Below, piece after piece: positions 26,288 to 61,910 of a DNA stretch of 64,000 bases. The DNA lies in NCBI GenBank assembly GCA_030220185.1, contig JASPKZ010001598.1:157001-221000 (forward strand), in the 5' to 3' direction. The notes under the pieces are model-generated. The model saw only the letters and a list, made by a program, of their open reading frames with translations, made no database searches and was not told where the DNA came from. Within the stretch, counting starts at the first letter, position 1, and each line of letters begins with the position of its first letter. The DNA comes from Diploptera punctata (Eukaryota > Arthropoda > Insecta > Blattodea > Blaberidae). Made by a program: the position numbers and the translations under genes.

Positions 26288-26478
26288 GTTGAGGTATTAT
26301 TCAAAATTAGTATAAAATTATGGAATATTCACCTGAAAGGTCCGTCTCCTCAATTTAATTAATTATTTAACTGTAGTTGGATGATGGGACAAGTCCCGAA
26401 AGCGCTACAGTTAAATAATTAATTAAATTGAGGAGACGGACCTTTCAGGTGAATATTCCATAATTTTATACTAATTTT
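26288..26478. mobile_element. Penelope-like terminal palindrome P1
   Basis: Perfect 73-bp inverted arms (26303-26375 and 26406-26478) enclose a 30-bp hammerhead-like core. The arm sequence (GGTCCGTCTCCTCAA, AATATTCACCTGAAAGG) is the 3' end of the PLE at 39618, which has GIY-YIG coding sequence, so this is a solo inverted pair of PLE ends. The left side carries CCGTTGAGG, also seen at other PLE ends here. Confidence 0.85.
26371..26410 (+). ncRNA. Hammerhead-like core H1 (mutated)
   Basis: TGGATGA stands in place of CTGATGA, followed by stem II GGGAC/GTCCC, GAAA, a palindromic stem III GCGC, then TA and CAG for stem I. The altered core probably prevents cleavage. Confidence 0.55.
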
Positions 26479-26598
26479 GCAACAATATAATTTAATAACT
26501 TTTAATAATAAACAACTAAAATTTTCATAATAGAAACAACTGAAATTTTAATAATGGAAACAATTGAATTTTAATAAAATAAAAAACAATTAAAACTA

Positions 26599-27004
26599 TC
26601 GGCCGCGGTGGACCAGTGGTTATGCTCCTTGCCTCTGGTCCCGAGGGTAGCGGGTTCAAACCCGGCCGGGGTCGATGGATTTTTTGGATGGAAAAATTCA
26701 AGGAGCAAGTGCTCCAGGAGGGACTTTAAGCCGTGCGTCCCGAGTCTGAAGATGTTCAGACTTGTAAAAGATACTTAAGCCTGAATGAAAAGGCCTCTAA
26801 GCAAAATTTACCGAATTTTCCCGTCCTAGTACTACCTTGGTTTTCTAGATGTCAGTATGAGGCGGAACGCTGACCACGGAGCACTCAAATTACATCTATA
26901 CGAAAATAAGTGTAACTAAATTTGTATGGTTCAAATTCTTCCCTGTAAGGCGAAAGCGCCTTAATCTCTGTTAAGGGAAACACGGGCTTACAAGACACAA
27001 GAAG
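26599..27004 (+). mobile_element. SINE2, full length, with target-site duplication
   Basis: Head GGCCGCGGTGGACCAGTGG with B box GGTTCAAACCCGG, then the same body as at 17041. Flanking duplications AACAATTAAAA(C/T)TAT lie at 26584-26598 and 27005-27019. The B box is better preserved than at 17041. Confidence 0.95.
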
Positions 27005-27199
27005 AACAATTAAAATTATCTATTGGAGAAGGAAAGACTTTTTTTAAAAATGATGAAAAGTGCACTAACTCGAAAAAAAAGAGTAATTTTTTAATTGTGC
27101 CACTATTGCAGTCAATGAGCGATATATATTTTTATTAGTCGAATGTAATGGAAATTCATTTCACAATATCCGAGAGTAATAAAGACCTTTCATATAATT

Positions 27200-27560
27200 T
27201 TTAGTCTTCTTCTTCCTCTTCTTCTTTTTCTTCTTCTTCTTCTTCTTCACTTCACGGGCTAGGCAAATTGCCTGTTCCGCCTCACAGTTGTTCTGTCCAT
27301 CTTTTCACTGGCCTTCCTACATTCCTTGAACCTCTTGGCTTGTAGTCAAATGCTGCTTTTCGTAATCTTGTTACGTTCATTCTTTCTACATGCCTAAACT
27401 AGTTTTCTGTATATTCTTTGATTTTATCATTCAATGGATATACATTTAAATCTGTTCTTATATCTTCTTTCTTTATCCGGTCCATTCTTGTGCAGCCTTT
27501 TGTTCTTCTAAGGAAGTTCAATTCTACGCTTTGTATTCTACTTTGAATTTCTTTGGTCTA
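27200..27560 (-). mobile_element. LINE tail (NFLRRTKGCTR family)
   Basis: The minus strand reads VELNFLRRTKGCTRMDRIKK, RHVERMNVTRLRK and GSRNVGRPVKRWTEQL, ending in (GAA)n. It is the same family as 10158 and carries one in-frame stop. Confidence 0.88.
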
Positions 27561-27717
27561 TAATTTTTAGTACTAAATTTAATAAAGAAATCTACTAACC
27601 AATAATATATCAATGAAGATCAATTTGTATTTATGTAAAGCATTTTTTTCAAGATGAGCCACTAAGAGTAAACATCCAATTAGAGAATAAAATAATAGAA
27701 CAAGTGAGCAATTTTAA

Positions 27718-27935
27718 TTACTTCTTCTTCTTCCTTCCAAGTATTAGGCCAAGGCCTGTTACGATCCTATAGAAAATTTTCCCTCCAGCGTTTCATAGGA
27801 CGGCCCAGAGATCTTCGTCCTCTTGGTATATAATATTATAAACAGCTTTGGGCATCCGATTTGAACTCACACTTTCAAAACGGTGTTTCCAATTTAGTTC
27901 GTGCTGTTTAATATATTCCAAAATTGGCGTAGTCT
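27718..27935 (-). mobile_element. LINE tail whose 3' end is shared with SINE5
   Basis: The minus strand reads YIKQHELNWKHRFESVSSNR, MPKAVYNII and a GRPMKRW-type block. It then ends GGAAAATTTTCTATAGGATC, the two GGCC-rich half sites, and CTAATACTTGGAAGGAAG. The last roughly 60 bp are almost identical to the end of SINE5 (46203-46616). Confidence 0.82.
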
Positions 27936-27954
27936 TCAATTATTTTAAGATATA

Positions 27955-28335
27955 ACAAATACTTATGTCGATGGAAAAGGATTTCTTGAGGAGAGCAGCA
28001 AGATGTTCAAAATTAGACAAAATAAGAAATACTGCCATAAGAGAAAAAATGAATATTGATTATTCAATAGTAGATTATATATGGTACAAGCAATTAAATT
28101 GGTATGGGCATGTACGACGAATGCAAGAAGAAAGATTACCCAGGAAAACATTGGAATGGTGTCCACCTGGAAGAAGGAGGAGAGGAAGACCTCGAAACTC
28201 GTGGATGCAGTAATTAAGAACTGGAATGAGATCAAGAGGACTGGAGGACATACACTGGATGGAGAGAGACGAGTGGAGAAACTTTAGGCACAGAAAGATG
28301 TGTAAACATTAAAATTCTGTATATAAATAAATAAA
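27955..28335 (+). mobile_element. LINE-B tail
   Basis: Reads MEKDFLRRAARCSKLDKIRN, then NWYGHVRRMQEERLPRKTLE and PPGRRRRGRPRNSWMQ, with a frameshift before ERRVEK. It is followed by the AATAAATAAATT end. Confidence 0.9.
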
Positions 28336-59509: not shown

Positions 59510-59529
59510 ATATCGTAATTATTTTTAGA

Positions 59530-59982
59530 GATAATTAACAGTATAATGAAACCATCTTTAGTACAAAAGAACACAATATTACAGCTATATAAGGTTCTCG
59601 CTAGACCAGTATTAAGATATAGTAGTGAAGCATGGACAATACGAAGAAGAGATGAAAGCCGAATAATAGCAAAAGAGATGCGATTTATGCGCCGTATAGC
59701 AGGCTGTACAAAGTAGGACCGTAAAAGAAATGAGAAAATTATGGGAGAGTTGGCTGTAGAACCCATTCTCCACCATATAAAAAAACTACCAGAACAACTG
59801 GAAACCCCATATTCAATTAATGTCATCTCATAGAATTCCAAAAGCCATGCTCCGTTACTGCCCCCAGGTAAAAGATCGCTGGGACGTCCAAAAAAGCGCT
59901 GGATTGAAAATTCCTCTTTGAGACCGTAACAGGCCTCATGGCCTAATACTTGCATGGATGATGATGATGATGATGATGATGA
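59530..59982 (+). mobile_element. LINE tail inserted in element L
   Basis: The frame reads MKPSLVQKNTILQLYKVLAR, PVLRYSSEAWTIRRRDES and KEMRFMRRIAGCTK*, then HHIKKLPEQL and PGKRSLGRPKKRWIENSS, ending GGCCTCATGGCCTAATACTT and (GAT)n. The 3' end resembles that of SINE5. Confidence 0.88.
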
Positions 59983-60461
59983 TTTTTAAGATCTTCTTGG
60001 TGTAAATGAGCTGAAAGATAAAATTTGTTATTGAGTGTTATCCGTAAAAGAATTACCGCCGTGTGCTGCTACGCTTGTCCGGGAATGGAGTCATCCCCAT
60101 CTTCTTGGAATCAATCAGCTGAAAGATAAAAATGGTTATCGTGAACCGTAAATGATAGACATATTATGCTATCGCGGACTTATTTTTGTAGGTTTTCTTA
60201 GATAGGCCTATTCAATTCTGTGTGGATCTACATTAATTTGGAGTAGCCTATATGTTATGGTTTATACAGCATAAGTCATTTAAGAATCCGAATGTACCGA
60301 CAATTACGTTTTTCACTAAAAAGGGTAATTTTTAAGGGTGAAGAAGTTGATATTACAACTCTCTAATAGCCTAAAACCCTCCCGGGAGAACCTGAATATT
60401 TTGCAAAAAGCCCCATCATAGTCGGATGAACAGACAGACAGACAGACATTCGTTTATATAT

Positions 60462-61250
60462 ATATATATTATTCCCGGCTGTTGCCTTCGTATTTTTTTC
60501 GTTTCAGGTGAACTCCTACACCTAATGGTTTTAGAGTATAATAGATAGAGGTTAAACACTCGCCGAAGCTGAAAAACCATATGTACAAACGTAGGCTTAT
60601 ACATTGCGACGAAGCTAATATGGCGGTGATAGAGTCAATTTTTAATTTCGAATTTCTGATAAATATTCAATTGTAATAGTCGAATTTCACTCATTTTTTG
60701 ACAATATCTAGCTCCCTTGTTTTATTTTAATAGCATATACTGAGTTTCGTTTTGAAACATTGAAAATTGACACAGCTAGGGCGATTTTTATTTTTTTAGG
60801 TGAACTTCTACGCCTAATCGTTTTAAACTAAAATGTACGGCGGGTAAACACTCGTCGTACCTGAAAACCTGCAGGCTATGTAAAAAAAGATATACATTGC
60901 GACGAACCAAACATGGCGGTTGCTAGAATCTACTTTTAATATTAGATTTCAGATAGGCCTAAATCCCCATTTCAAATGATCGGATTCCACTTATTTTTTA
61001 ATACTACATACACCGATTTATTTTAAAGTCGTATACTGAGTTTCGTTGTGAAACATCGAAAATTACTACTGCTAGAGCGATTTTTAAATTTTTGTTTCAT
61101 GTTAACTCTTACACTTGATGGTTCTAGAGTATAACAGATGGCTGCTAAGCACTCACTGTACTTGAAAACCTGTACGTACATATTTTCAAGTCAAAAGACT
61201 TTCTACTTTCCCAGTTTTGCGAGCACAAATATAGACAGACTGAATTTTTA
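60462..61250 (+). repeat. Element O: about 300-bp tandem repeat, 2.5 units
   Basis: Units start near 60508, 60800 and 61101 with GTGAACTCCTACACCTAAT or a diverged form. Each contains ACATTGCGACGAA(G/C)C, ATGGCGGT and ATACTGAGTTTCGTT. Divergence is high. A fragment lies at 47640. Confidence 0.75.
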
Positions 61251-61489
61251 TATAGGGGCCTAAAGATTGCCTTAAAATGTAGATGGTCTTTTCCATTCCA
61301 TTCCAATAACTTAGATTAATCTCGCACCTTATAGGTAATCCTATTTTTTACATGTTCACACGTCATCAGGACCTTTCGGTGAGACATGTCGGGAGAGGGT
61401 TTTAAACTATGGATCATTCACAAATTGTTTTACTCCCCAAGAGCATGGATGATCTCCCGAATGGGTGTAGATGGTTTATTATTTATTTA

Positions 61490-61575
61490 TTTATTTATTT
61501 ATTTATTCAACCTGGTGGAGTTAAGGTCATGTGGCCTTCTATTCTACACACCAGGACAAACGTAATTATGTTACA
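61490..61575 (-). mobile_element. LINE 3' end with (ATTT)n
   Basis: (TTTA)n is followed by CCTGGTGGAGTTAAGGTCAT and GTGGCCTTCTATTCTAC, the inverse of the conserved LINE end at 42350. Confidence 0.65.
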
Positions 61576-61611
61576 TTACAATATAACAATCACAATTAAG
61601 TAATCAATTAA

Positions 61612-61910
61612 ATTTGTTTTTACTTCATGAAAATCCATATCTATTTAATTAAATAAAAATAAAACTTAAATGATTTTCATATTTATTAAATTTATAGTAA
61701 AGATTGTTTATATAAAAAATGTTTGTTTACATTCAGTTGCATAGTTACAGTTGTTATGTACTTGAGTTTATATATAATAACAAAATTCTTTCATTTGTAA
61801 TCATGTCTGAAGAAGGTACAAAGTACCGAAACAGCTGTTACGAATTTATATTTTAATAAATATGAAAATCATATAAAACTTTAAGTTTTATTTTTATTTA
61901 ATTAAATAAA
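61612..61910 (+). mobile_element. Penelope-like terminal element P7
   Basis: Short inverse arms (TTTAATTAAATAAAAATAAA at 61648 and its mirror ending 61906) surround an AT-rich centre and one hammerhead-like motif. It is the same family as P2, more diverged. Confidence 0.75.
61802..61842 (+). ncRNA. Hammerhead-like ribozyme H11
   Basis: CTGAAGA at 61807-61813, stem II GGTAC/GTACC with loop AAA, GAAA at 61828-61831, stem III CAGCTG, then GTTA. Both core strands are intact. The cleavage triplet is GTT instead of GTC. Confidence 0.72.

What the first reader, a model, noticed from the sequence alone, without database searches (positions are those of the whole stretch)
26288..61910. Eleven hammerhead-ribozyme-like motifs in seven Penelope-like palindromes, of four sequence types
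Seen: CTGA(A/T)GA-type strand, short stem II, GAAA, a palindromic 4-6 bp stem III (GCGC, GGCC/GACC or CAGCTG) and a UH site recur at 26371, 28906, 29206, 29324, 29571, 39685, 45408, 45775, 54614, 54704 and 61802. Two copies carry adjacent PLE endonuclease coding sequence. Established: hammerhead ribozymes are known in PLE terminal repeats. Inference: the number and variety in 36 kb of one genome suggest several PLE lineages, some recent. H3, H8, H9 and H11 keep both core strands.
Basis: partly seen in the sequence, partly recalled or inferred. Interest (0 to 1): 0.85.

Follow-up and report, generated by a model that had tools for sequence, protein, structure and literature searches.

The report
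Two-ended Penelope insertions carrying hammerhead motifs
The stretch is littered with short palindromic copies of Penelope retrotransposons that carry small self-cutting RNA motifs, and genome copies suggest each insertion is made by copying one RNA into DNA from both sides of the cut, which would explain a long-standing oddity of these elements.

Summary
All eleven motifs exist. Eight fit a minimal type I hammerhead descriptor (shuffles: mean 0.37, max 2 of 60), and stems I and II change in step between four families. Rfam scores none. H2 is also intact; H9's core is made by an inversion breakpoint. The copies are Penelope-like elements. Two families have about 17,000 and 21,000 exact hammerhead 3' halves in the 3.1 Gb host genome.

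What matters more is the palindrome. Copies are two antisense cDNAs meeting head to head inside one target duplication, most often 12 bp. One outer end stops at a proximal reverse-transcription start (P). The other stops about 47 nt further, at the end of the 'tail' (D). Exactly one end had the tail in 61 of 63 resolved copies. Some D arms are tail only, and two insertions are just the P-D segment. Published self-priming cannot make these; two-site target-primed reverse transcription can, perhaps on one RNA, because inner ends coincide beyond chance. The hammerhead looks dispensable: 60 of 75 sampled motifs of the young family have C at position U4, and cDNA ends do not pool at the cleavage site. 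Membership is ordinary; the mechanistic inference was not found in my searches.

The parts
26275..26487 (.). E1: family B head-to-head copy (H1); tail on left end (26284-26294 tail motif), P end on right
   Evidence: TSD weak (6 bp), boundaries approximate
26372..26412 (+). H1 hammerhead remnant, C3/U4 lost at the inversion junction
28742..29735 (.). E3: family D head-to-head copy (H4/H5), tail on right (29702-29712), TSD TAAATAATA; interrupted by E2
28808..29295 (.). E2: family A head-to-head copy nested in the left arm of E3; tail on left, P end on right; 12 bp TSD TTTGTTAAAATA at 28796-28807 and 29296-29307
28906..28945 (-). H2 hammerhead, family A, core intact (CTGAAGA), stem I 2 bp
29204..29243 (+). 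H3 hammerhead, family A, core intact, predicted cleavage 29243/29244
29324..29364 (-). H4 hammerhead, family D, U4A
29569..29609 (+). H5 hammerhead, family D, U4A
39623..40217 (-). E4: family B copy (H6) with GIY-YIG coding sequence; P end on left; only an 11-nt tail motif (40206-40216) on right, no TSD found; right end unclear
39685..39723 (-). H6 hammerhead, family B, U4C
39858..40097 (-). GIY-YIG endonuclease coding fragment, PF01541 E 7.7e-05
45282..45887 (.). E5: family C head-to-head copy (H7/H8); tail on left, P end on right; TSD ACCAGAAGGAAGAT(C/G)GA (14 bp exact)
45408..45446 (-). H7 hammerhead, family C, G12A
45468..45824 (+). PLE endonuclease C-terminal reading frame running into H8
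   Evidence: no Pfam match
45772..45810 (+). H8 hammerhead, family C, core intact, stem I at least 5 bp, one stem III mismatch
53802..53847 (+). Solo tail: family A P-to-D segment only, flanked by 13 bp TSD ATTAAAAATTATT
54530..54870 (.). E6: family D head-to-head copy (H9/H10); P end on left, tail on right; TSD ATA(G/A)TAGATA
54614..54653 (-). H9 hammerhead-like; CTGAAGA created by the inversion junction, stem II bulged
54702..54742 (+). H10 hammerhead, family D, U4A
61603..61899 (.). E7: family A head-to-head copy (H11); tail on left, P end on right; TSD AATTAA(G/A)TA
   Evidence: exact part of TSD 6 bp
61802..61841 (+). H11 hammerhead, family A, core intact, UU cleavage site

Best explanation
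These are short copies of four families of Penelope-like retrotransposons (ORF with RT then GIY-YIG, then minimal hammerhead, then a pLTR of about 55-70 bp, then what looks like the ORF start). SHOWN: a typical copy is two antisense cDNAs of the element's 3' end joined head to head inside one target-site duplication, most often 12 bp. One outer end lies at the proximal start site P, the other at the distal start site D about 47 nt downstream. INFERRED: the element protein makes a staggered double cut. Each 3' end primes reverse transcription on the transposon RNA, one at P and the other at D, most likely on the same RNA molecule. The P-primed RT leads and the D-primed RT trails. The two cDNAs are then joined by microhomology or small filler, giving the palindrome. 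The hammerhead sits at the ORF/pLTR boundary, may cut multimeric transcripts in families with an intact core (A, C), and is not needed for insertion.
For: PLE identity: GIY-YIG PF01541; RVT_1 1.6e-09 and a GIY-YIG match just under its cut-off upstream of the hammerhead in genome copy L044, RT weakly like telomerase RT. Hammerhead: 8 hits vs 0.37 in shuffles; stem II, covariation score reached by 1 of 500 shuffles; all three stem I pairs and two of five stem II pairs change on both sides between families. Exactly one tail: family B 39 of 40 resolved of 60 loci; family A 16 of 17 resolved of 20 loci; window 6 of 6 clear copies. Coin-flip probability for 61 of 63: 2e-16. One insertion event: exact TSD of 7 bp or more in 29 of 36 copies vs 10.7% of mispaired flanks. 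Both arms RNA-templated: tail-only D arms with TSD 11-14 bp in L020, L024, L042, L045, L051 and L070, L077; solo tails in the window and L053. Same template: inner ends of the two arms within 20 nt in 13 of 36 (permuted mean 4.6, max 12 in 10,000); P arm longer in 25, D in 9, equal 2, p=0.009. Junctions differ between copies of one family. Independent biochemistry: the Anolis PLE protein extends both strands and starts RT at two adjacent sites whose interval is the tail (PMC11167929, abstract and main text read).
Against: Same-RNA use is indirect: arm lengths correlate weakly (r = 0.22 on logs), only 3 of 24 copies have private variants shared by both arms, and the partner arm is the closest arm for only 20 of 48 arms. 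The D arm is longer in 9 of 36 copies. L009 has only 12 nt of tail and L078 none; L086 pairs doubtfully. 20 of 60 family B loci and 3 of 20 family A loci were not resolved at both ends. Some P ends lie 20-60 nt short of P (L022, L049, L077, L081, L084, L086). 7 of 36 copies have no exact TSD of 7 bp. PMC11167929 saw no difference in start site between strands in vitro. End typing was read by me from BLAST hits, not blind. Hammerhead cleavage was not tested.
Confidence: 0.72

Rival explanations
1. Self-priming: a fold-back of an antisense PLE RNA (published proposal) or of the first cDNA copies one arm from the other, giving a hairpin that integrates.
For: Proposed for palindromic PLE junctions in Adineta vaga (PMC3846280, Discussion read). 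Near-equal arms (inner ends within 50 nt) in 20 of 36 copies would fit.
Against: One arm cannot supply the tail that it lacks; tail-only D arms opposite long P arms share almost no sequence (L020, L024, L042, L045, L051); solo tails exist. Two junctions with equal inner ends (L034, L036) leave no hairpin loop.
Confidence: 0.12
2. Two-ended TPRT on two different RNA molecules, with start sites chosen by dimer geometry and not by one shared template.
For: Explains the one-tail rule if the protein dimer is asymmetric; the partner arm is the closest arm for only 20 of 48 arms.
Against: Inner ends coincide far more than permuted pairs, and the P arm usually leads; L036, L012 and L050 share private variants between arms.
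Confidence: 0.2
3. The hammerhead drives the cycle: self-cleaved or circular RNA, as in retrozymes, is the template, so arms should end at the cleavage site.
For: Hammerheads recur at the ORF/pLTR boundary in all four families; tandem hammerhead units occur (L013, L047, L083). E1 and L065 arms end 3 nt from the site, and one outer end (L081) lies 2 nt after it.
Against: Inner ends within 3 nt of the cleavage site: 2 of 72 in family B (values tabulated) and none among the family A hits. The core is CCGATGA in 60 of 75 family B anchors, yet that family has 16,858 exact 3' halves. In Anolis, ribozyme mutants do not affect insertion in vitro (PMC11167929).
Confidence: 0.05
4. Chance motifs or post-insertion inversions of ordinary copies.
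For: Rfam finds no hammerhead.
Against: Descriptor and covariation controls; reversed-pattern genome controls 0 against 16,858 and 20,839; TSDs around the whole palindrome.
Confidence: 0.01

Closest known systems
Penelope/Poseidon-type EN-containing PLEs (D. virilis Penelope, Anolis PAc, Adineta Pen2a)
   Same: RT plus GIY-YIG ORF, pLTRs in inverted orientation, optional tail (31 bp in Adineta, 30-40 bp generally) on one inverted pLTR, TSD 8-10 bp, AC-rich start-site region (PMC3846280 and PMC11167929, parts read)
   Different: Here many copies are very short, tail lengths are about 44-48 nt, TSDs most often 12 bp, the one-tail rule is counted, and solo-tail insertions are seen
Minimal type I hammerhead ribozymes of PLEs (Cervera and de la Pena 2014; not held, known from passages of PMC6155905 and PMC7229834)
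   Same: Minimal type I fold without a proper helix III, in PLE terminal repeats; type I motifs with weak helix III are described as working far better as dimers
   Different: H6 and most sampled family B motifs have C, and H4/H5/H10 have A, at U4; one extra nucleotide follows A9 in all 11; family A stem I is only 2-3 bp
L1 twin priming (recalled, no call)
   Same: Two primers on one RNA give an inverted internal junction
   Different: In L1 it is occasional and leaves one inverted segment; here both ends are 3' ends of the RNA and it looks like the normal route
Metazoan retrozymes (PMC7229834, passages)
   Same: Type I hammerheads in small repeats, suspected PLE mobilisation
   Different: Retrozymes are tandem 170-400 nt units with canonical hammerheads; here head-to-head, with minimal motifs

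Membership tests
Penelope-like element (EN-containing) | GIY-YIG endonuclease C-terminal to RT | tested here: met
   PF01541 in E4; in L044 RVT_1 and then, downstream on the same strand, a GIY-YIG match just under its cut-off
Penelope-like element (EN-containing) | RT related to telomerase RT | tested here: inconclusive
   Telomerase RT chains matched only at E 0.02-0.06, behind another RT at 0.009
Penelope-like element (EN-containing) | pLTRs, inverted, optional tail, TSD | tested here: met
Hammerhead ribozyme type I | Conserved core CUGANGA...GAAA...UH with three stems | tested here: inconclusive
   Core met by H2, H3, H8 (one stem III mismatch), H11; deviates in, or is a breakpoint product in, the other seven
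Hammerhead ribozyme type I | Rfam covariance model above gathering score | tested here: not met
   that minimal PLE variants without a stem III loop lie outside the models is my inference
Hammerhead ribozyme type I | Compensatory changes in stems | tested here: met
   stem II, (three of five measures reached by 1 of 500 shuffles, two not unusual); stem I and stem II by hand register
Hammerhead ribozyme type I | Self-cleavage | not testable with these tools
   needs RNA
Retrozyme | Non-coding tandem monomers 170-400 bp with canonical hammerhead | tested here: not met
   head-to-head copies, several with PLE coding sequence

The most novel reading that the evidence does not exclude
PLE integration is normally two-ended: a staggered cut is used by both DNA ends, and each insertion uses two fixed RT start sites (P and D) flanking a stem-loop at the start of the ORF on one RNA, so that palindromes, one-sided tails and solo tails are all products of one reaction that differs from LINE TPRT. 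The hammerhead is a dispensable passenger in the most recent expansion.
Probability: 0.5. Interest if true: 0.75.

Novelty: new member of a known kind. Interest (0 to 1): 0.56.

Why it matters
How Penelope-like elements insert, and why their copies have inverted ends and a tail on one side only, is still open (the 2013 and 2024 papers read here leave the replication cycle unsettled). About 38,000 exact family A and B motif matches in one genome give a readable record of the reaction, and the sample agrees with the two start sites and two-strand extension seen in vitro in Anolis. It also supplies genomic evidence that hammerhead cleavage is not needed for insertion.

Tried and rejected
Rfam at gathering and at E up to 10: no hammerhead. 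Protein search with the E5 reading frame: no hit. Viral contig scan for a B/C-type hammerhead with intact core: 0. Monomer and dimer folds of six motifs with ViennaRNA: stem II forms in all six monomers; the minimum-energy dimer is an extended duplex in H2, H3, H6 and H8, while H11 shows both stems II plus an intermolecular stem III; no activity can be read from this. No own covariance model was built, because MAFFT misaligned stem I and III of family A (A1) and stem II (A2). I first thought that E7's short arm ended at the cleavage site; one search puts it 11 nt away. I expected the D arm always to be shorter; it is not (9 of 36). A count of CCGATGA cores genome-wide did not complete, so the U4C share rests on 60 of 75 anchors and on 1,548 exact CTGATGA forms against 16,858 exact 3' halves (the two patterns do not cover the same stretch). 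That U4 changes cripple a hammerhead is recalled, not looked up. Genome counts for families C and D were not obtained (for D, unanswered). The host species was not determined.
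Full report
WHAT IS THERE. The window is 64 kb of a 3.12 Gb genome (contig C1591) dense in repeats (482 inverted-repeat pairs of 40 nt or more). All eleven motifs of the finding are present. A descriptor of a minimal type I hammerhead, shaped on these motifs, gives 8 hits with at most one core mismatch and 4 with none; 60 dinucleotide shuffles give mean 0.37 (max 2) and 0.05 (max 1). Rfam gives no hammerhead at gathering or at E up to 10. Stem II, four pairs counted on 10 distinct rows: pair 3 is G-C, A-U, U-A or U-G. 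The percentage paired, the cells changed on both sides and the covariation score are each reached in 1 of 500 shuffles, but the number of pairs with a change on both sides (435 of 500) and of further pair types (213 of 500) are not unusual. In the hand register, stem II pair 5 is C-G or G-C, and the three stem I pairs switch between families (G-C/U-A, U-A/G-C, C-G/U-A or U-G). All eleven have one extra nucleotide after A9.

FAMILIES AND CORES. A (H2, H3, H11): core CTGAAGA, stem III ACAGCTGT. B (H1, H6): CCGATGA in H6. C (H7, H8): CTGATGA. D (H4, H5, H10): CAGAAGA. H9 seems intact, but its CTGAAGA is the point where the left arm of E6 switches strand. Intact cores outside a breakpoint are therefore H2, H3, H8 and H11. 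In 75 family B anchors from 60 genome loci, 60 read CCGATGA, 4 CTGATGA and 11 something else; the four have 6-23% pLTR mismatch against a median of 1.5% for the sixty. So the U4-to-C change seems to mark the young expansion. Exact CTGATGA forms number 1,548 against 16,858 exact family B 3' halves. Family A has 20,839 exact 3' halves. The reversed-pattern control is 0 in each of these three searches.

PLE IDENTITY. The H6 copy encodes a GIY-YIG domain on the minus strand (PF01541, 7.7e-05). Genome copy L044 has, on one strand in order, an RVT_1 fragment (1.6e-09), a GIY-YIG match (3.7e-04, below the curated cut-off) and the hammerhead; a further 268-aa frame upstream has no Pfam match. The RT is weakly like telomerase RT (E 0.02-0.06). 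In E4 and E5 the coding frame runs into the hammerhead (ADDGTSPE...).

ANATOMY OF THE PALINDROMES. Read outwards in RNA sense, each arm is [ORF 3' end]-hammerhead-pLTR-end. One outer end stops at P (about 67 nt after the cleavage site in B, 55-62 in A). The other goes on 44-48 nt, through an ATG that I take for the ORF start, to D. In one search, E2 and E7 share both end points, and E3 and E6 do to within about 3 nt. E2 is nested in E3 with a 12 bp duplication, which fixes its ends. In the window, 6 of 6 clear copies (E1, E2, E3, E5, E6, E7) have the tail at one end only; E1 and E7 have only 6 bp of exact TSD. E4 is unclear: an 11-nt tail motif at 40206 and no TSD; at up to one mismatch that motif is expected 0.67 times in the window by chance.

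GENOME TEST. Family B: 40 loci had both ends recognisable. 39 have exactly one tail; L009 has 12 nt of tail at one end; none has two. Family A: 17 loci had both ends in the fetched region; 16 have exactly one tail (L086 pairs doubtfully, no TSD), L078 none. Together with the window this is 61 of 63; a fair coin gives 2e-16. Leaving out the five tail-only family B arms, which could not be seen without a tail, leaves 34 of 35 in family B (1e-09). Of the 20 unresolved family B loci, 8 show an exact repeat of 8 bp or more close to the inner end of the single arm (no mispaired control was run for this), and in L026 and L056 the few bases in between match the last 9 and 12 or so nt of the tail: very short D arms. 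The other 12, among them all three with the tail at the visible end (L035, L046, L062), gave nothing. L079 in family A is a D arm alone with a TSD by eye.

ONE EVENT, TWO TEMPLATED ARMS. For 36 copies (35 loci plus E1; L009, L013, L023, L044, L047 and E4 left out as complex or unclear) an exact TSD of 7 bp or more is present in 29, against 10.7% of mispaired flanks; 12 bp is the commonest length. So the palindrome was there at insertion. In L020, L024, L042, L045, L051 (B) and L070, L077, L080 (A) the D arm is tail only or nearly so, opposite a longer P arm. Neither arm can be a copy of the other, which excludes fold-back synthesis, cDNA or antisense RNA, for these copies. Two family A insertions are just the P-D segment with a TSD: window 53802-53847 (13 bp) and L053 657-708 (about 11 bp by eye).

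COUPLING. Inner ends of the two arms lie within 20 nt in 13 of 36 copies (permuted pairs: mean 4.6, never reached in 10,000) and within 50 nt in 20 of 36 (mean 8.4, never reached). The P arm reaches further in 25, the D arm in 9, equal in 2 (p = 0.009). Junctions show -11 (insert) to +7 (microhomology) bases. This fits two reverse transcriptases following each other on one RNA, P ahead of D. It is not proof: log arm lengths correlate only at 0.22, arms of one copy share private variants in only 3 of 24 copies, and the partner arm is the closest arm for 20 of 48. The P-D interval folds in A and B as a 5-bp stem with an AC-rich loop whose 3' base is at D (single-sequence folds without control; family D folds otherwise).

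LITERATURE. Inverted pLTRs, a tail on one of them, 8-10 bp TSDs and a proposal of self-priming on an antisense template are in PMC3846280 (passages and Discussion read). PMC11167929 (abstract and main text read) shows that the Anolis protein cuts and extends both strands, that RT starts at two adjacent internal sites whose interval is the tail, that the two strands do not differ in start site, and that ribozyme mutants do not change insertion. In the parts I read it does not link the two start sites to the two DNA ends. Searches for Penelope with twin priming (3 papers, listing only) and for PLE with TPRT and GIY-YIG (5 papers, listing; besides PMC11167929 one was opened for passages) showed no such model; most subscription journals and all preprints are outside this library. 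Other searches. The 2014 paper on PLE hammerheads is not held; its content is known from passages in PMC6155905 and PMC7229834.

HAMMERHEAD ROLE. If self-cleaved RNA were the template, cDNA inner ends should pool at the cleavage site. Of 72 inner ends in family B, 2 lie within 3 nt (E1, L065; values tabulated), and none of the family A hits does; one outer end there (L081) lies 2 nt after the site. With a C at U4 in most sampled motifs of the young family, cleavage seems not to be needed for spread. That U4C is crippling is recalled; cleavage was not tested.

VERDICT. The finding is real and its reading supported: minimal PLE hammerheads of four families, a new member of a known kind. The more interesting result is the two-ended insertion signature, which can be tested on the copies behind some 38,000 motif matches.

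Noticed in passing
window 20013-21288 (+): Five near-identical tRNA genes at about 301-bp spacing.
   Followed up: no
window 5894-5964 (-) and 6195-6266 (+): Two tRNA-like genes in inverted orientation, largely within a 101-bp 97% inverted repeat.
   Followed up: no
window 44474-45016 (-): Fragment with a Mos1-type transposase HTH (PF17906), near a pair of 92-bp inverted repeats at 44302-44393 and 44899-44990.
   Followed up: no
window 56703-56990: Hairpin with 96-nt arms, 84% complementary, overlapping a weak mir-577 match below cut-off.
   Followed up: no
window 29441-29500: Internal partial duplication of the ORF end inside E3, so its spacer is not a simple junction.
   Followed up: partly
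G000 C5:3618273-3618413 and C6:1272029-1272132; L083, L047, L013: Tandem hammerhead units on one strand (three at 61-bp spacing in C5), the arrangement in which a loop-less stem III could act as a dimer.
   Followed up: no
L044 2773-3874: A LINE-like RT frame (by eye) lies between the two arms of a 4-kb head-to-head PLE copy; later insertion or template switch not decided.
   Followed up: no
L081 200-396 (-): A family A arm whose outer end lies 2 nt after the hammerhead cleavage site instead of at P; single case.
   Followed up: no
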